From an uncultured Mycoplasma sp. (lineage in GTDB: Bacteria > Bacillota_I > Bacilli_A > RF39 > UBA660), in NCBI GenBank assembly GCA_947388575.1, contig CANDSI010000072.1, positions 1-5,997 of the forward strand: DNA of 5,997 bases. The letters are read 5' to 3'. A program made the translations under genes and the position numbers. This document shows positions 1 to 5,997 of this stretch, piece by piece. Every line of letters begins with the position of its first letter. Position 1 is the stretch's first letter. A model generated the notes under the pieces. That model saw only the letters and a program-made list of their open reading frames with translations, was not told the DNA's origin and did no database searches.

Positions 1-2621
1 ATAGTAATACCTTATTTCTAATGGATAGTGTAAAAGGTATTATTTCGGTGCCTTCATTTAAGAAGTATTTTGAAAGAGAAAGTTATGGGAAATTGTCTAT
101 TACAACGGAGATTTTTCCTAAAGTAGATGGTAAAGTTGTTTCTTATCAAGATACTCATCCAATAGGATACTATTTAAAACAAAATGAACAAAATCCAATA
201 GGTTATAAAGATAAAAATGAAGGGGCTAGTAGAGAAAAAGAGTTAATTAATAATGCTGTTCGTTATATAAAAAATCAAGTGGTAGCATCTGGTATAACAG
301 CGAGTGATTTAGATGCCGATGGAGATAATAAAATAGATGCTATATCTTTTATTATTGAAGGGCAAAAAAAATTACCATCAAGTATAGCTTGGGGTGATAT
401 TCTATGGTCTCATGAATCTTCTAATACAGGTATAACTGAACAAATTTTAGGAAAAGATGTTAATGCTTACACATTACTACGCGCTGATGATTATACAGAA
501 GTTGCTAGTTTATTTTCTCTTAATCATGGTGGATATGGTACTATTATTCATGAATTTGGTCATGTTTTAGGTTTTAGAGATTTATATCGTTATGGTAATT
601 CTAATTCAAAACCAGTAGGCTTTTATGATATAATGGGAAATGCGATTGGTTCTAATCCTCAAAGTTTTTTAACTTACTTTACAAGTGAATTTAGTTCAGC
701 GATAAGATGGCATAATCCTATACCTGTTATAAATAAATCAACTGAAAATATAACTTTATTTAAACCAAACTTTATAGATGCGAATGAAAAACGAGCTATT
801 AAAATTCAAATACCTGGTATTACTAATGAATATTTTATTGTAGAATATCATGAAAAGTTAAATACTTATGACGATTATTCAGCGGATTCGAATGGAATTA
901 TAATTTATAGAGTTAATGAACAGAATAAATATAATGGTAATGGTGATGGAAGTAATAATGGGAAAAATGACCACATTTATGTTTTTAGACCTGGAGAAAC
1001 TGGCTTAGGTCAAGGATTAGGAAATCTATCTTCAGCAACACTTAATATGCAAAGAAAAACTTTTGGAAAAGATATAGATTTAAATAATTCAGCTTTTGAT
1101 AATCAAACAATCTTTTTTACGGATGGTACTAATTCGGGTATATCAATTAATGTTATAAGTGAAACCTCTAATAGTGTAACTTTCAATGTTAAATTTACTG
1201 AATTTGATGGAAATGGAACTAAAGAAAGTCCTTATTTGATAAAAGATTCTAATACTTTTTTATATTTAATGAGTATTGATACTGAAAATAAATATTATAA
1301 ATTAGCAACTGATATTGACTTTAATAATATATCAAATTATCCTAGTATTGATTTTAAAGGTAATTTAGATGGTAATAATAAAACTTTAGCTAATATTAGA
1401 AGTAATGGGACAGGAGTATTTAATAATATAGGAGCTTTTAATAGTCATACTAAAATTGAAAATTTATTTATTGAAAATATAATTGTAACTGGTAATAGAA
1501 AAGATTATCTAGGTGGTTTTGCTAATGTTGCTGAAAATATTACTTTAACTAATGTAAGACTTAAAAATGGAAGTGTAACTAATGAAGTAGAGGGACAATA
1601 TAGTTTAAGTTCTACAGGAGGTTTTATTGGTAACGTTAATGATACTACTATTATTGATAATTGTTCTACGGCATTAAATGTAAGTTCTACTAATAATGCG
1701 GGAGGATTTATTGGGATTAATCAAAATGCAACAATAAAGAATAGTTTTGCTAATGGAACTATAAAGGGACAAAAAAATGTTGGCGGTTTTATTGGCATCC
1801 AAGCGATAAATAGTACTTATAAAACACCTATAAATGTTTATTTTAATAATAATGATAATAATTTGCTAGGTGCTGGTGGTTATGTAGAAGGATTTCATGA
1901 TTTAAGTTTTCTGAATAATTCATCTTTATCAATGGGAATAATAAGTATAACTAATTCTAAAAATATAAATATGGATAATAATGCTAAGGTTAGACCTGAA
2001 ATATTTAGTAATCCAAATACTAATCTTAATTATCTTTTAGAAGCATCTAATTCTAATATCGCAATTTCTGATAATCAAATAGTTGGAGTTAAACCTGGCT
2101 CGTCAGTTGTTTATATCGATATTTTGATTGGAACTGGTAAAATGCGTTTGGAAGCTAATGTTACAATAAAAAATGTGGAAGTTGTAATTTCAGAAGATGA
2201 AGTATTAAAAAAGTTAGGCTTAAAAAAGAATAATGGTTATGTTACTGGTTTTAAACTCGGAACTAATGTTAAAACTATTAAATCTTTAATAGCTAATAAT
2301 AATATAGTTTTAAAAAGTTTTAAAAATTCTTCAAATATAGAAATCAATGATGGCTTAATTGCGACAGGAATGAAGTTTACATTATTTTTTAATAATACAG
2401 AATATAATTATACCGTTGTTATAAAAGGTGATGTTAATGGTGATGGAGAGATATATGCTACGGATTATGTTAAAGTAAAAAATCACATAATGGGTAAATC
2501 TAGTTTAGCGGGTGCTTATCTTTTGGCAGCTGATATAAATAATGATGGTAATATTTATGCTACCGATTATGTACAAATAAAAAATCATATAATGGGTAAG
2601 ACAACTATATCGCAAAAATAA
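1..2621 (+). CDS. Secreted M6-family zinc metalloprotease with GLUG repeats and C-terminal dockerin (5' partial)
   Basis: Predicted extracellular zinc endopeptidase. Residues are numbered from the ATG at 21. The zinc site is HEFGHVLGFRDLY at 177-189 (H177, E178, H181), followed by the Met-turn FYDIMG at 201-206. Both are typical of M6 (immune-inhibitor-A-like) peptidases, as is the DADGDNKIDAI acidic segment near 98-108. After the catalytic part, the segment from about 397 (GNGTKESPYLIKD) starts a beta-rich region with GGF(I/A) GLUG-like repeats. A weak Ig-like stretch follows near 660-718, then a pre-dockerin module (about 725-802) and a two-repeat type I dockerin (803-860). No LPXTG motif or terminal membrane anchor is present. 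The ATG at 21 is probably internal: the frame stays open to the window edge, no ribosome binding site precedes it, and no signal peptide is visible. The true start therefore lies outside the window. The family call is firm; the substrate is unknown. Confidence 0.93.
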   Translation, partial: SNTLFLMDSVKGIISVPSFKKYFERESYGKLSITTEIFPKVDGKVVSYQDTHPIGYYLKQNEQNPIGYKDKNEGASREKELINNAVRYIKNQVVASGITASDLDADGDNKIDAISFIIEGQKKLPSSIAWGDILWSHESSNTGITEQILGKDVNAYTLLRADDYTEVASLFSLNHGGYGTIIHEFGHVLGFRDLYRYGNSNSKPVGFYDIMGNAIGSNPQSFLTYFTSEFSSAIRWHNPIPVINKSTENITLFKPNFIDANEKRAIKIQIPGITNEYFIVEYHEKLNTYDDYSADSNGIIIYRVNEQNKYNGNGDGSNNGKNDHIYVFRPGETGLGQGLGNLSSATLNMQRKTFGKDIDLNNSAFDNQTIFFTDGTNSGISINVISETSNSVTFNVKFTEFDGNGTKESPYLIKDSNTFLYLMSIDTENKYYKLATDIDFNNISNYPSIDFKGNLDGNNKTLANIRSNGTGVFNNIGAFNSHTKIENLFIENIIVTGNRKDYLGGFANVAENITLTNVRLKNGSVTNEVEGQYSLSSTGGFIGNVNDTTIIDNCSTALNVSSTNNAGGFIGINQNATIKNSFANGTIKGQKNVGGFIGIQAINSTYKTPINVYFNNNDNNLLGAGGYVEGFHDLSFLNNSSLSMGIISITNSKNINMDNNAKVRPEIFSNPNTNLNYLLEASNSNIAISDNQIVGVKPGSSVVYIDILIGTGKMRLEANVTIKNVEVVISEDEVLKKLGLKKNNGYVTGFKLGTNVKTIKSLIANNNIVLKSFKNSSNIEINDGLIATGMKFTLFFNNTEYNYTVVIKGDVNGDGEIYATDYVKVKNHIMGKSSLAGAYLLAADINNDGNIYATDYVQIKNHIMGKTTISQK
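1512..1796 (+). repeat. GLUG-type protein repeats inside the metalloprotease
   Basis: Residues 498-592 (numbered from the ATG at 21) hold four units beginning GGFAN, GGFIG, GGFIG and GGFIG. Their first glycines are at 498, 533, 561 and 588, a spacing of 35, 28 and 27 residues. Each unit continues with an N/T/I-rich strand such as NATIKNSFANGTIKG. GLUG repeats are common in bacterial surface proteins and peptidases, where they are thought to form elongated beta structure. A spacer or adhesive role between catalytic domain and dockerin is inference. Confidence 0.7.
2427..2600 (+). repeat. Type I dockerin module: two calcium-binding repeats
   Basis: Residues 803-860 of the protease contain two F-hand loops. 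The first is DVNGDGEIYATD (D804, N806, D808, D815) and the second is DINNDGNIYATD (D838, N840, D842, D849). Each is followed by a helix ending in NHIMGK. At DNA level the 48-nt blocks 2451-2498 and 2553-2600 match at 41 of 48 positions. Dockerins bind calcium and attach enzymes to cohesin modules on scaffold or surface proteins. No cohesin is encoded in this window, so the partner is unknown. Confidence 0.88.
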
Positions 2622-2658
2622 TGTTATCAAATATAGGAGTTCTTAAAAATAGTTTTAG

Positions 2659-2682
2659 AAAGATAAATTAAAGTTTATCTTT
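2659..2682. other. AT-rich 9-bp inverted repeat between protease and Cdd1-like gene
   Basis: AAAGATAAA (2659-2667) and TTTATCTTT (2674-2682) are perfect reverse complements around the 6-nt loop TTAAAG. It sits 37 bases after the protease stop and 19 bases before the next start. It could be a weak bidirectional terminator or processing hairpin. However, each stem has only one G-C pair and no long T-run follows, so in this AT-rich DNA it may be chance. No convincing promoter for the next gene was seen in the 80-base spacer. Confidence 0.3.
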
Positions 2683-2701
2683 AAATATAAGTGAGGTTAA
2701 A

Positions 2702-2953
2702 ATGAAAACTGATTTGTTAACAATTCCTTATGTTGGTAAAAATACAAAGGAAGATTTGATTAATATAGGAATAACTTGTGTAGAAGATTTAGTTGGTAAA
2801 GATCCAGAAATATTATACATGGATGATTGTATATTTAAAAAATATCAAGAAGATAGATGCCAATTATATGTATTTAGAATGGCAGTTTATTATGCAGAAC
2901 ATGAATTTCCTGATGCTGAAAAATTAAAATGGTGGTATTGGAAAGACAAATAA
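2702..2953 (+). CDS. Cdd1-family helix-hairpin-helix protein
   Basis: This 83-residue protein resembles the Pfam 'pathogenicity locus' (Cdd1) family, named for a small gene at the Clostridioides difficile toxin locus. The N-terminal half has the helix-hairpin-helix pattern IPYVGKNTKEDLINIGI (8-24) followed by VEDLVGKDPEILY (27-39). The second half carries the family-like residues D42, C43, D51-R52-C53, the helix LYVFRMAVYYAE (55-66) and the tryptophan-rich end LKWWYWKDK (75-83). The start is supported by GTGAGG at 2691-2696, five bases before the ATG. Length is full for the family. Helix-hairpin-helix folds usually bind DNA non-specifically, but no cellular role is established to my knowledge. 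It lies 81 bases after the protease and 100 bases before the ABC-F gene; co-transcription with the latter is possible but not shown. Confidence 0.85.
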   Translation: MKTDLLTIPYVGKNTKEDLINIGITCVEDLVGKDPEILYMDDCIFKKYQEDRCQLYVFRMAVYYAEHEFPDAEKLKWWYWKDK

Positions 2954-2980
2954 TATTTTAATAAAAAGAAATTTTATATA

Positions 2981-2987
2981 AGAGGTG
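2981..2987 (+). promoter_or_regulatory. Strong ribosome binding site of the six-codon leader ORF
   Basis: AGAGGTG contains GAGGTG, a six-base match to the 16S rRNA anti-Shine-Dalgarno complement, ending five bases before the ATG at 2993. A site this strong in front of a six-codon frame is the main evidence that the short ORF is translated. Confidence 0.65.
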
Positions 2988-2992
2988 TAAAC

Positions 2993-3013
2993 ATGAGAAT
3001 GATAAAAGATTAA
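2993..3013 (+). CDS. Putative leader peptide MRMIKD upstream of the ABC-F gene
   Basis: ATG AGA ATG ATA AAA GAT TAA encodes MRMIKD. It has a well-placed strong ribosome binding site. Its stop codon ends four bases before the first arm of a pair of competing hairpins that reach the ABC-F Shine-Dalgarno. Short leader ORFs with such hairpins are established control elements for antibiotic-resistance genes (erm, cat, several ABC-F genes). The peptide has no alternating Arg/Lys (+X+) arrest motif and no IFVI-type motif, so any drug-dependent stall would have to be at the start codon or sequence-independent. Translation is inferred, not demonstrated. Confidence 0.6.
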   Translation: MRMIKD

Positions 3014-3017
3014 GTAT

Positions 3018-3053
3018 GGCATAAACTTTGATTATGCCGAAATGGAGGCATAA
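3018..3053 (+). promoter_or_regulatory. Putative translational attenuator: mutually exclusive hairpins masking the ABC-F ribosome binding site
   Basis: Arm 1 is GGCATAA at 3018-3024, arm 2 is TTATGCC at 3032-3038, and arm 3 is GGCATAA at 3047-3053. Arm 2 is a perfect 7-bp complement of both other arms, giving hairpin 1:2 (loop ACTTTGA) or hairpin 2:3 (loop GAAATGGA), never both. Arm 3 includes the last GG of the Shine-Dalgarno GGAGG (3044-3048) and runs up to the ATG at 3054. Hairpin 2:3 should therefore block ABC-F translation, and hairpin 1:2 should free it. A ribosome at the leader stop codon would cover arm 1. One held at the leader ATG would not. No T-run follows either hairpin, so control would be at translation rather than by termination. 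Confidence 0.6.
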
Positions 3054-4553
3054 ATGTTAGAAATAAAAAATTTAAGTATTAAGCTTAATGATAGATATTT
3101 AGTAGAAAATTTATCGTTGGTCTTAAATAAAAATGATAAATTAGCTATAATTGGTGAAGAAGGAAATGGAAAGTCTACTTTATTAAAAGCTATTTTGGGT
3201 ATAGCTAATTATGTAAATATTACTGGTACTAGTAATGTTCTTGGTAATAAAATAGGGTATTTAGCTCAAAATATAAACGAAGCTGATTTAGATAAAAGAG
3301 TGTTTGATTATTTGTTTTTAAATGATAATGATTATTATAATAAAGTTAATTCTTTTTATAAATATTTGGAAATAATTAATTTAGAAGATATTATATTAGA
3401 ACAATTAATTAAAACTTTATCGGGTGGAGAAAAAGTAAAAATTGGTATTTTAAAATTATTATTAGAGGAAAATGATATCTTATTTTTAGATGAGCCTACT
3501 AATGATTTAGATTTAGATACTTTATTTTGGTTAGAAAACTTTTTGGTAAATACTTCTAAACCAATTATGTATGTTTCACACGATGAGGTATTACTTTCTA
3601 AGACAGCGAATATTATTTTACATTTAGAACAAATAAATAATAAGACTAAAGCTAGACATACTTTAGTAAAAACTGATTATGATACTTATATTAGTGAAAG
3701 ATTAAAATGGTTAGACAAAGAAACACAACTTGCTAAATCACAAAAAAGAGAGTATCTAAAAAAAGAAGCTAAATTACAACAAGTAATGAATAAAGTTCAT
3801 TATGAACAAAATACTATTTCAAGAAGTGACCCTCATGGAGCTAAACTTTTAAAGAAAAAAATGCATTCCCTAAAGGCTCAAGAAAAAAAGCTTGATAATA
3901 TGGAGCTTACTGAAATACCTGATACAGAAGAGAGTATTAATTTCTTTTTTGAAGATGTTTTTATTCCTAGTACGAAGAAAATTATTAGTTTAAATATTCC
4001 AGAATTGAAATTTTCCAATAAAGTTTTAGCTAAAAATATTTTATTAGATGTAATTGGTAATACGCATTTATGTATTGTAGGTAATAATGGGGTTGGGAAG
4101 ACAACTTTAATGAAAATAATATATGAAGAGTTGAAAGTTAGAAAAGATATTAAACTTGGGTACATGCCCCAAAACTATGATGACATTTTAAATGATTATG
4201 AAAATGTAATAGATTTTTTAAATCTTAGTAGTAAAGATGATATTACTAAAGCTCGAATGTATTTGGGGAATATGAAGTTTACAAGAGAAGAAATGACGGG
4301 AAAAATAAAAAATTTAAGTAATGGAGCTAAAGCTAAATTATTTTTGCTTAAGTTAGTTCTTGATAGAAATGATGTTTTATTACTTGATGAACCTACTAGA
4401 AATGTTAGTCCTTTATCTAATCCTGTAATAAGACAGGTTTTAAATGATTTTAAAGGGACAATTATAAGTATTTCTCATGACCGAAAATATATAAGTGAAG
4501 TAGCTAATAAAGTTTATATTTTAACTAAAGATGGTTTAAAAGAAGTTAATTAA
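3054..4553 (+). CDS. ABC-F subfamily ATPase (possible antibiotic-resistance ribosome protection protein)
   Basis: A 499-residue soluble protein with two ABC domains and no membrane segments, the ABC-F plan. These proteins act on the ribosomal E site; one branch dislodges antibiotics, others serve translation. NBD1 has Walker A GEEGNGKST (34-42), signature LSGGE (122-126), Walker B ILFLDEP with D146/E147, and H176. A Lys/Glu-rich, coiled-coil-like linker spans about 205-295 and contains SRSDPHGAKLLKKKM (256-270). NBD2 has Walker A GNNGVGKTT (343-351), Q373, a degenerate signature LSNGA (421-425), Walker B VLLLDEP with D445/E446, and H475. The usual NHLD after Walker B is replaced by RNVSPLSNP. 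Length is close to Lsa/Msr-type resistance proteins. GGAGG at 3044-3048 fixes the start. The leader-and-hairpin region upstream favours an antibiotic-inducible role; specificity cannot be assigned. Confidence 0.9.
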   Translation: MLEIKNLSIKLNDRYLVENLSLVLNKNDKLAIIGEEGNGKSTLLKAILGIANYVNITGTSNVLGNKIGYLAQNINEADLDKRVFDYLFLNDNDYYNKVNSFYKYLEIINLEDIILEQLIKTLSGGEKVKIGILKLLLEENDILFLDEPTNDLDLDTLFWLENFLVNTSKPIMYVSHDEVLLSKTANIILHLEQINNKTKARHTLVKTDYDTYISERLKWLDKETQLAKSQKREYLKKEAKLQQVMNKVHYEQNTISRSDPHGAKLLKKKMHSLKAQEKKLDNMELTEIPDTEESINFFFEDVFIPSTKKIISLNIPELKFSNKVLAKNILLDVIGNTHLCIVGNNGVGKTTLMKIIYEELKVRKDIKLGYMPQNYDDILNDYENVIDFLNLSSKDDITKARMYLGNMKFTREEMTGKIKNLSNGAKAKLFLLKLVLDRNDVLLLDEPTRNVSPLSNPVIRQVLNDFKGTIISISHDRKYISEVANKVYILTKDGLKEVN

Positions 4554-4560
4554 CCATATT

Positions 4561-4590
4561 AAAAGTAAGAAGAAATTCTTGCTTTTTTGT
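4561..4590 (+). terminator. Intrinsic terminator after the ABC-F gene
   Basis: The stem AAAAGTAAGAA (4561-4571) pairs with TTCTTGCTTTT (4576-4586) through 11 pairs, one of them a G-U wobble. The loop is the GNRA tetraloop GAAA (4572-4575). A six-T tract at 4583-4588 closes it. It lies 7 bases after the ABC-F stop and separates that unit from the transporter operon. Confidence 0.9.
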
Positions 4591-4669: not shown

Positions 4670-5437
4670 ATGAATGAAGTTTTAAAAATTAATAATGTTA
4701 AGAAATATTATGGAACAAATACAAATATAACGAAAGCGGTTGATGGTATTACTTTTTCTTTAAATGAAGGAGAATTTGTAGCTATTATGGGAGCTAGTGG
4801 TTCTGGTAAATCAACACTTTTAAATTGTATTTCGACTATTGATAATGTTACTAGTGGTAATATTTTTGTAGGTAATCAAGATATAACTACTATTAAAGAG
4901 GATGATTTAGCAGATTTTAGACGTAAAAATTTAGGTTTTATTTTTCAGGATTTTAATTTATTAGATACTTTAACTATTGAAGAAAATATAGCTTTATCTT
5001 TAATTATAAATGAAAGTGAATGGAAAAGTGTAGACGATAGAGTAAATAAAATGGCAACTAGTCTTGGAATAGATAATATTTTAAATAAATTTCCTTATGA
5101 AGTATCAGGAGGACAAAAACAAAGATGTGCTTGTGCAAGAGCCTTAATTAATAAGCCAAAATTAATTTTAGCTGATGAACCAACGGGTTCTTTGGATTCT
5201 AAATCTTCTAGAATGCTTTTAGAAACAATGGCGAATATGAATACAGATTTTAAGGCAACAATTTTAATGGTAACTCATGATTCATTTTCAGCTAGTTTTT
5301 GTAAAAGAGTTTTATTCTTAAAGGATGGTAAAATATTTAATGAAATAGTAAAGGGTGAGAAATCTAGAAAAGAGTTTTTTAATGAAATACTAGATATCTT
5401 AACTTTACTTGGAGGAGATGTTTCTAGTGTTAAGTAA
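4670..5437 (+). CDS. BceA-type ABC transporter ATP-binding protein
   Basis: ATPase subunit of an FtsX-type transporter, 255 residues from the ATG at 4670, the usual length for the BceA/YxdL/YtsC group. Walker A is GASGSGKST (41-49, K47), the Q-loop IFQDFNLLDTLTIEENIAL (91-109), signature VSGGQ (145-149), Walker B LILADEP with D169/E170, D-loop SLD (174-176) and H203. The C-terminal pattern ILMVTHDSFSASFCKRVLF (198-216) followed by KDGKIFNEIVKG is characteristic of BceA-like proteins rather than LolD/MacB. Relatives work with a BceB permease to sense and resist peptide antibiotics such as bacitracin or lantibiotics, usually with a two-component system; none is visible here. The permease gene follows with an 11-base overlap, implying translational coupling. 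The peptide substrate is unknown. Confidence 0.93.
   Translation: MNEVLKINNVKKYYGTNTNITKAVDGITFSLNEGEFVAIMGASGSGKSTLLNCISTIDNVTSGNIFVGNQDITTIKEDDLADFRRKNLGFIFQDFNLLDTLTIEENIALSLIINESEWKSVDDRVNKMATSLGIDNILNKFPYEVSGGQKQRCACARALINKPKLILADEPTGSLDSKSSRMLLETMANMNTDFKATILMVTHDSFSASFCKRVLFLKDGKIFNEIVKGEKSRKEFFNEILDILTLLGGDVSSVK
5411..5417 (+). promoter_or_regulatory. Ribosome binding site of the permease, within the ATPase gene
   Basis: GGAGGAG lies nine bases before the GTG at 5427. The in-frame ATG at 5418 touches this site and is too close to use it, which favours the GTG start. Confidence 0.7.
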
Positions 5438-5997
5438 GCTTGCTATTAGAAATGTAAAACGTAGTTTTAAAGATTATGCTATTTATTTGATTACGATAAC
5501 TTTGACTTTTGCTTTTATGTTTGCTTTTAATTTAATTACAACTTCAGAAGATGTATTAAATCTTAGTGAAGTTATGAGTAATTTTGAATTTGCTATGTAT
5601 TTTGTTAATGCTTTTGTCTTAGTAGCAGTTTGTTTTCTTATTAATTATACTACCAAGTTTATGTTTGAAAAGAGAAGTAGAGAATTTGGTACTTATATGA
5701 TACTAGGTATTAAAAAGAAGGAAATATCTAAAATATTTACTTTAGAAAATATTATTTTAGGTTTTTTATCACTTTTAATATCTATACCTATTGGTTATTT
5801 ATTTAGTTTGATTATGTCTTTTGTTATTATGAATATATTTGAATTACCTGAACTTGTTAAAATAAGTTTTAACTTAAAAGCAGTACTTTTACTATTTTTA
5901 TATTTTGGTATTATATATTTAATTGTCTTATTTTTATTAAGAAGAAGACTTAAAAAAATGAAAATAAATAATTTGATTCATTTGGAAAAACAAAATG
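5427..5997 (+). CDS. BceB-type FtsX-domain ABC permease (3' partial)
   Basis: The first 190 residues of a permease that continues past the right edge; BceB proteins are usually around 650 residues with ten membrane segments. From the GTG start the protein begins MLSKLAIRNVKRSFKDYAIY, the standard opening of BceB-like permeases. Four hydrophobic segments are visible near 18-38, 55-75, 107-133 and 150-171. Between the second and third lies the FtsX-like cytoplasmic motif KRSREFGTYMILGIKKKEI (82-100). The large extracellular domain that binds or senses the peptide would lie beyond the window. An alternative ATG at 5418 would add MFL but is poorly spaced from the ribosome binding site. The gene overlaps the ATPase by 11 bases, so the two are made together as one transporter in the cytoplasmic membrane. 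Confidence 0.9.
   Translation, partial: MLSKLAIRNVKRSFKDYAIYLITITLTFAFMFAFNLITTSEDVLNLSEVMSNFEFAMYFVNAFVLVAVCFLINYTTKFMFEKRSREFGTYMILGIKKKEISKIFTLENIILGFLSLLISIPIGYLFSLIMSFVIMNIFELPELVKISFNLKAVLLLFLYFGIIYLIVLFLLRRRLKKMKINNLIHLEKQN

What the first reader, a model, noticed from the sequence alone, without database searches (positions are those of the whole stretch)
2981..3056. Leader peptide plus three-arm RNA switch controlling an ABC-F gene
Seen: a strong ribosome binding site, the six-codon ORF MRMIKD, then GGCATAA (3018-3024), TTATGCC (3032-3038) and GGCATAA (3047-3053). The middle arm pairs perfectly with either outer arm. The third arm overlaps the ABC-F Shine-Dalgarno and abuts its ATG. 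Two exact 7-nt complements placed this way within 36 bases are unlikely by chance. Known: erm, cat and several ABC-F genes use leader-peptide attenuation. Inferred: finishing the leader places a ribosome over arm 1, lets 2:3 form and shuts off ABC-F. A block at or before the leader ATG, as by drugs that inhibit early elongation, lets 1:2 form and opens the gene. This three-arm logic is the reverse of ermC, where stalling on the leader itself displaces the first arm. I know of no description of this exact element.
Basis: partly seen in the sequence, partly recalled or inferred. Interest (0 to 1): 0.78.

Follow-up and report, generated by a model that had tools for sequence, protein, structure and literature searches.

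The report
Three-arm RNA switch before ABC-F gene
A short conserved RNA element in uncultured bacteria appears to keep a ribosome-protection-like gene off while ribosomes finish a six-codon leader, and to release it when ribosomes get stuck at the leader's start, the reverse of the textbook antibiotic-resistance switches.

Summary
It is a conserved element upstream of related ABC-F genes, hit in 56 of 385 genomes of one order (50 intact) and 5 of 395 of its class. In L092/L093 all three arms change together (GGCATAA/TTATGCC/GGCATAA to GGTATAA/TTATACC/GGTATAT), as alternative 1:2 and 2:3 pairings require. In 66 of 66 elements the leader start lies 17-30 nt before arm 1: a ribosome on the start codon leaves arm 1 free, a terminating one covers 4-7 of its 7 bases. 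Addition: AAGU before arm 1 and ACUU after it could form an H-type pseudoknot stabilising the ON state (54 of 66); without it nested folding predicts the window off. uORF attenuation of ABC-F genes is known, including an MR[I/M] leader for CplR; this reversed three-arm topology was not found in seven searches of an open-access library. Direction, drug signal and resistance function are untested inferences.

The parts
2981..2987 (+). Shine-Dalgarno of the leader ORF (AGAGGTG)
   Evidence: Sequence; GGAGGTG, AGAGGTG or GAGGTG in 60 of 66 elements
2993..3013 (+). Leader ORF MRMIKD with stop TAA
   Evidence: A leader ORF was assigned in 66 of 66 elements (some by reading), 3-9 codons, 42 with six; codon 2 is Arg in 50 of 66, by AGA (46), CGA (2) or CGC (2). 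Translation not measured.
3012..3015 (+). AAGU, proposed 5' strand of pseudoknot stem S1; overlaps the leader stop
   Evidence: 54 of 66 can form at least 4 bp with the loop, G-U allowed; in the 50 with exact AAGU and ACUU, AAGU is 2 nt from arm 1 in 47 and 1 nt in 3, and lies in leader frame 1 in 40, frame 0 in 7, frame 2 in 3
3018..3024 (+). Arm 1 GGCATAA
   Evidence: 1:2 pairing kept in 99.0% of cells of 58 selected rows, two pairs with changes on both sides
3025..3028 (+). ACUU in the loop of hairpin 1:2, proposed 3' strand of S1
   Evidence: AAGU and ACUU both present in 50, both absent in 12, one alone in 4 of 66
3032..3038 (+). Arm 2 TTATGCC, shared by the two alternative helices
3044..3048 (+). 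ABC-F Shine-Dalgarno GGAGG
   Evidence: Sequence; AAGGAGG or a variant of it ending in arm 3 in the types listed
3047..3053 (+). Arm 3 GGCATAA, overlaps the ABC-F SD and abuts its ATG
   Evidence: 2:3 pairing kept in 99.3% of cells of 58 selected rows; arm 3 is GGCATAA in 53 of 66; changes with arms 1 and 2 in L092/L093
3054..4553 (+). ABC-F protein, 499 aa, two ABC_tran domains
   Evidence: NF000355 ribo_prot_ABC_F E 6.9e-84 but 282.5 bits against a cut-off of 380; PF00005, two stretches

Best explanation
A translational attenuator that senses whether ribosomes finish a short leader. Ribosomes that reach the end of MRMIKD sit on AAGU and arm 1; arm 2 then pairs with arm 3, hiding the ABC-F SD: OFF. 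Ribosomes held at the start codon or first codons (as pleuromutilins, lincosamides and streptogramin A are expected to do) leave AAGU and arm 1 free; arm 1 takes arm 2, probably locked by AAGU with the loop ACUU as an H-type pseudoknot, and the SD is exposed: ON. Shown by comparison: a leader ORF, three arms, both pairings, conserved ribosome-scale spacing. Inferred: direction, pseudoknot, drug as the signal, resistance as the output.
For: A single copy in each of the 16 genomes that gave the loci, upstream of the ABC-F start. Triple concerted change in L092/L093; L080 compensates in 1:2, L015 in 2:3. Pair counts exceed shuffles for 1:2 with S1 (covariation score 0 of 500, pairs with two-sided change 2 of 500) and for the 2:3 covariation score (4 of 500). 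Start-to-arm-1 distance is 21-26 nt in 63 of 66, while the stop's first base ranges from 9 nt before arm 1 to 4 nt past its first base. Nearest-neighbour cost of opening arm 3's core: median 2.7 kcal/mol with a ribosome at the start, 7.9 at termination; harder at termination in 64 of 66. The +16 toeprint used as ruler is in PMC9226507 (passages). [quoted passage not shown]
Against: Arms are so conserved that covariation rests on few rows: for 2:3, one pair with two-sided change in two related rows, a count that 86 of 500 shuffles reach. The 58 rows counted were chosen as having the arms. L013 breaks 1:2. Without the pseudoknot, 1:2 is at least as stable as 2:3 in only 24 of 59 rows, and 2:3 is the minimum in the window. 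Rows with S1 and rows without it differ in that balance (Mann-Whitney p 3.5e-4, not corrected for kinship), but only 3 independent contrasts exist on well-supported branches, too few for significance. Repression needs the finishing ribosome's occupancy, or a kinetic trap, to last long enough; not testable here. No clear promoter in the window before the leader. No expression data.
Confidence: 0.6

Rival explanations
1. Same switch, different signal: it reads slow early elongation in general (for example scarce Arg-tRNA at the conserved second codon, or low initiation), not a drug.
For: Arg at codon 2 in 50 of 66 leaders; the geometry does not ask why the ribosome stops early.
Against: 16 of 66 lack Arg there (7 Lys, 4 Ile, 2 Ser, 2 Asn, 1 Tyr), and AGA/AAA second codons also favour initiation (recalled). 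The gene is an ABC-F, and the studied ABC-F genes with leaders that I read about are drug-inducible.
Confidence: 0.15
2. Classical erm/msrD-like direction: a drug stalls the ribosome late in the leader and this turns the gene on.
For: Known leaders work by the stalled ribosome covering an inhibitory segment (MsrDL) or rearranging the RNA to expose the SD (ermC).
Against: A terminating ribosome covers 4-7 bases of arm 1 in 66 of 66, which leaves 2:3, the SD-hiding helix, for arm 2. The last residue of the leader varies (13 kinds; Lys in 29 of 66).
Confidence: 0.08
3. Hairpin 1:2 is a fixed structure that brings the terminating leader ribosome close to the ABC-F start for re-initiation; arm 3 similarity is secondary.
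For: The leader stop starts within 9 nt of arm 1's first base, and folding 1:2 shortens the path to the ABC-F SD.
Against: Does not explain why arm 3 copies arm 1 and changes with it, nor leaders whose stop overlaps arm 1 (L074, L075, L090).
Confidence: 0.08
4. The hairpins only tune mRNA stability or basal translation; there is no regulated switch.
For: No expression data; some close relatives (L094, L109, L114, L123) live without it.
Against: Two mutually exclusive helices of nearly equal mean energy (-7.9 and -8.3 kcal/mol over 59 rows) plus a leader of near-fixed spacing are hard to explain for a constitutive hairpin.
Confidence: 0.09

Closest known systems
CplR leader, Clostridioides difficile (PMC10201436; section 20 and passages seen)
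   Same: ABC-F gene, short uORF beginning MR[I/M], SD sequestration, induction by retapamulin and lincomycin
   Different: Three-codon uORF in a 212-nt leader with an intrinsic terminator; by the authors' model the stalled ribosome disrupts the hairpin that holds the uORF. Here no terminator was found and the stalled ribosome acts by not reaching arm 1.
VmlR leader, Bacillus subtilis (PMC9226507; passages seen)
   Same: ABC-F, tiny uORF (MIN; variants include MRK), SD-hiding hairpin, drugs that stall initiating ribosomes
   Different: 219-nt leader with anti-antiterminator, pause sites and terminator; ON by a stalled ribosome preventing the base of SL-1
MsrD leader MsrDL (PMC10314930; passages seen)
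   Same: ABC-F with a six-codon leader peptide (MYLIFM)
   Different: Erythromycin blocks termination; the stalled ribosome covers half a terminator hairpin. Transcriptional.
ermC translational attenuator (PMC10219788, passages seen; arm scheme recalled)
   Same: Leader peptide, alternative helices, SD release
   Different: Stalling on the leader displaces the first arm to turn on; here masking the first arm turns off
trp-type attenuator (recalled)
   Same: Finishing the leader masks a segment so that the repressive helix forms downstream; arms 1-2-3 correspond to trp segments 2-3-4
   Different: No segment 1, an SD instead of a terminator, no repeated sensor codons
toiL uORF of topAI (PMC12121999; passages seen)
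   Same: uORF sensing several antibiotics, RBS occlusion
   Different: By the authors' model the stalled ribosome opens a hairpin that includes the uORF itself

Membership tests
uORF/leader-peptide attenuators of ABC-F genes | Short translated ORF upstream with its own SD | tested here: met
   66 of 66 have an ORF of 3-9 codons; SD of the GAGGTG class in 60 of 66. Translation itself not measured.
uORF/leader-peptide attenuators of ABC-F genes | Downstream gene is an antibiotic-resistance ABC-F | tested here: inconclusive
   ABC-F clear; NF000355 282.5 bits against cut-off 380; no resistance data
uORF/leader-peptide attenuators of ABC-F genes | Mutually exclusive RNA structures, one hiding SD or terminating | tested here: met
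   1:2 and 2:3 share arm 2; both kept in sequence; triple change L092/L093. Structures not probed.
uORF/leader-peptide attenuators of ABC-F genes | Drug-dependent ribosome stalling and induction | not testable with these tools
   needs experiment
erm-type attenuator | Stalled ribosome masks the first arm and thereby frees the SD | tested here: not met
   By sequence and energy only: masking arm 1 leaves arm 2 for arm 3 over the SD; opening cost rises in 64 of 66
CplR/VmlR/MsrD-type transcription attenuator | Intrinsic terminator between uORF and gene | tested here: not met
   0 terminator-like sites in window 2500-3600; no T run after arm 2 or arm 3 in the window
Described Rfam family | Match above gathering score | tested here: not met
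   0 matches; two matches far below gathering score

The most novel reading that the evidence does not exclude
A leader-completion switch: a trp-like three-arm attenuator without segment 1 that works on the SD, uses a pseudoknot over the leader stop codon as its ON lock, and reports start-codon arrest by the absence of a ribosome on arm 1. It would be a separate solution to drug sensing, opposite in polarity to erm, msrD, vmlR and cplR.
Probability: 0.45. Interest if true: 0.75.

Novelty: new variant of a known kind. Interest (0 to 1): 0.64.

Why it matters
Drugs that stop ribosomes right after initiation show little sequence preference, so a leader that measures whether ribosomes travel about 25 nt is a natural sensor for them and needs no special stalling peptide. 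If right, leaders with no conserved late residues can still be drug sensors, and similar completion switches may be overlooked by searches that look for stalling peptides and terminators. It is compact (about 75 nt) and testable with a reporter in a laboratory strain.

Tried and rejected
Chance: rejected by shuffles and conservation. Intrinsic terminator: none. Known Rfam family: none. Viral carriage: 0 matches of the core pattern in viral contigs. Loop ACUUUGA pairing with the linker, or with ABC-F codons 2-3 (seen in the fold of window 3024-3070): judged, by reading the sequences, not the general reason for loop conservation, because the linker varies and ACUU rather than UGA is kept. AAGU:ACUU as a nested hairpin helping the OFF state: less likely, because rows with S1 already favour 2:3 (median 1.1 kcal/mol) while rows without it favour 1:2 (median -2.5), so S1 balances the switch only if it helps 1:2. 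Phylogenetic test of that: too few independent events. Leader calls by script were wrong for L014, L019, L020, L058, L061 and were set by reading the sequence. The frame count of AAGU printed (23, 22, 9) was an artefact of its 5-bp option; one search gives the right one (40, 7, 3). Promoter in the window: not found; a perfect TATAAT 14-75 nt upstream of the leader start in 25 of 66 rows against 11.1 expected from shuffles.

Rows dropped before counts: one search counts 66 elements including the window; dropped were L001 (near copy of the window), L021-L036 and L038-L046 (25 relatives without the element, among them Clostridia with other MR-leaders), L094, L099, L102 (leader kept, arms lost), L109, L114, L123 (leader and arms lost), L097 (remnant), L100 and L101 (weak model hits at unrelated genes). 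Of L094, L099, L102, L109, L114, L123, one (L109) still has GCATAA before its ATG. A3 held 58 chosen rows; five weak hits of the first alignment of 63 (L094, L097, L099, L100, L101) were left out, which raises its pairing percentages. The eight elements added were not in A3. The tree used the 66 plus 15 chosen relatives without the element; five rows had under half of the columns filled, and 30 of 78 inner branches were weak.

Full report
What is there. The window holds a strong SD (2981-2987), a six-codon ORF MRMIKD (2993-3013), GGCATAA (3018-3024), TTATGCC (3032-3038) and GGCATAA (3047-3053), the last overlapping the GGAGG SD of a 499-aa ABC-F ORF that starts at 3054. Every coordinate in the finding is right. 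Two perfect 7-bp pairings sharing the middle arm occurred in 0 of 2000 dinucleotide shuffles. No Rfam family matches and no terminator-like site was found between leader and gene.

It is a conserved element. Of 46 ABC-F relatives found in genome contigs, 21 (L001-L020 and L037, 55-98% identical) carry the same arrangement upstream; none of the other 25 (23-52% identical) does, by reading. A covariance model from the window and 18 of them (alignment, model) found one copy in each of 16 genomes that had given the loci, so presence there is by construction and the point is the single copy. It hit 56 of 385 genomes of the order at E up to 0.01. Six of those 56 are not intact elements: L100 and L101 are chance hits at unrelated genes, L097 is a remnant, and L094, L099 and L102 keep a leader without the arms; that leaves 50. 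In the class it hit 5 of 395 genomes, four of which were already in the order draw. A second model hit 33 of 193 genomes of one family and 32 of 193 in a largely overlapping draw. A protein search of the same 385 order genomes gave 57 with the ABC-F at E up to 1e-60. On an ABC-F tree of 81 chosen rows, presence of the element needs at least 5 changes, as one origin and four losses would give.

Both pairings are kept. In 58 aligned rows chosen as having the arms, arm 1 with arm 2 forms standard pairs in 99.0% of cells, with changes on both sides in two pairs, and arm 2 with arm 3 in 99.3%. The clearest case is L092/L093: GGTATAA, TTATACC, GGTATAT, where all three arms have moved together, keeping seven pairs in 1:2 and six of seven in 2:3. 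L080 compensates in 1:2 (GACATAA/TTATGTC), L015 in 2:3 (ATATGCC/GGCATAT), and L143 changes arms 1 and 3 in parallel to GGCATAG. Against: these are few rows; the number of two-sided pairs in 2:3 (one) is reached by 86 of 500 shuffles, though its covariation score is reached by only 4 of 500; L013 has an uncompensated mismatch in 1:2.

The leader looks real and its spacing fits a ribosome ruler. In 66 distinct elements, the window included, the leader has 3-9 codons (42 have six) and Arg at codon 2 in 50, coded by AGA 46, CGA 2 and CGC 2 times. The distance from its start to arm 1 is 21-26 nt in 63 and 17-30 in all; the stop's first base lies from 9 nt before arm 1 to 4 nt past arm 1's first base, and the stop overlaps arm 1 in three rows. 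Using the +16 toeprint of an initiating 30S subunit (PMC9226507, passages), a ribosome on the start codon leaves arm 1 free in 66 of 66, and a terminating one covers 4-7 of its 7 bases in 66 of 66. In the window a ribosome with codon 3 in the P site reaches AAGU and with codon 5 reaches arm 1. Opening arm 3's core costs a median 2.7 kcal/mol with a ribosome on the start codon, 7.9 with one at termination and 3.8 on naked RNA; it is harder at termination in 64 of 66 (exceptions L013, L080).

AAGU sits just before arm 1 and ACUU directly after it; 54 of 66 rows can form at least 4 pairs there, G-U allowed. Exact AAGU and ACUU occur together in 50 rows: AAGU is 2 nt from arm 1 in 47 and 1 nt in 3. 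This is the layout of an H-type pseudoknot with a 1-2-nt first loop over the 7-bp helix. In 40 of the 50, AAGU overlaps the stop codon as UAAGU; in the other 10 the leader reads it in a different frame (7 and 3 rows) and AAGU still keeps its place next to arm 1, so it is not just stop-codon context. AAGU and ACUU are both present in 50, both absent in 12 and single in 4 rows. Varied forms that still pair: L088 AAAGU with GCUUU and L090 UAGU with GCUA. Rows without S1 tend to have longer 1:2 stems (8 or 9 bp in 8 of 12 against 2 of 54) and favour 1:2 over 2:3, while rows with it favour 2:3 before any pseudoknot bonus (median differences -2.5 and +1.1 kcal/mol, p 3.5e-4 uncorrected). Much of this is one old split in the tree; only 3 independent contrasts are on well-supported branches, too few for significance. 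With an assumed bonus of 2 kcal/mol for S1 the two-state estimate of P(2:3) with arm 1 free falls from 0.89 to 0.24 in the window. Without it the nested fold of the window is 2:3. So the ON state needs the pseudoknot, or kinetics, to work: this is the weakest step.

Mechanism. Finishing ribosomes mask AAGU and arm 1, leaving 2:3 to hide the SD. Ribosomes arrested at the first codons leave them free, and 1:2 with the pseudoknot exposes the SD. PLSA drugs are held likely to stall short ABCF uORFs after initiation with little sequence preference (PMC10201436), which suits leaders whose later codons vary. Drug response and resistance function were not tested; the ABC-F scores 282.5 against a cut-off of 380 for the ribosomal-protection model.

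Compared with what is known. uORF control of ABC-F genes is established or proposed for VmlR (MIN), CplR (MR[I/M]), LsaA (MAGN), VmlR2 (MK[L/Q]) and MsrD (MYLIFM) (passages and one section). In the three whose mechanism I saw (VmlR, CplR, MsrD), the stalled ribosome prevents an inhibitory structure, and a terminator is involved. Here covering arm 1 is what represses, as in the trp attenuator (recalled) with the SD in place of the terminator and no segment 1. The core sequence itself was not found in print, nor an ABCF pseudoknot switch; the other searches were made, all in an open-access library whose listings I saw, so absence elsewhere is not shown.

Noticed in passing
L022, L024, L025 (upstream of the ABC-F start): Clostridial relatives (48-49% identical) have MR-leaders (MRNRSN, MRSK, MRIIA) but different hairpins; L022 has AGTAACTAG/CTAGTTACT/AGTAACTAG and a possible second helix reaching the SD, closer to a four-arm erm layout (read).
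   Followed up: partly
L097:96-181 and downstream: A decaying copy of the element runs straight into the C-terminal part of an ABC-F gene: a remnant of a deleted gene.
   Followed up: partly
L062 (G214), L086/L130 (G280): ABC-F copies with one or two internal stop codons behind an element whose arms are kept.
   Followed up: no
G762: C71 and C91; G218: C66 and C3: G762 has two copies of the element on different contigs; G218 has a second ABC-F homologue.
   Followed up: no
window 4556-4590: An AT-rich inverted repeat followed by TTTTTT after the ABC-F gene looks like a terminator, though the scan lists none there; it asks for at least 3 G-C pairs.
   Followed up: no
window 4671-5996: ABC transporter ATPase (PF00005) followed by an FtsX-type permease (PF02687), a pair like those that handle peptide antibiotics (resemblance recalled).
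   Followed up: no
window 3-2621 and 2702-2953: Upstream genes: an M6-type metalloprotease with a C-terminal dockerin domain and a GLUG motif, and a Cdd1 (PF11731) protein ending 39 nt before the leader start.
   Followed up: no
L026 upstream region: TATTTAT/ATAAATA/TATTTAT around the SD gives a perfect AT-only triple without a convincing leader; probably chance.
   Followed up: no
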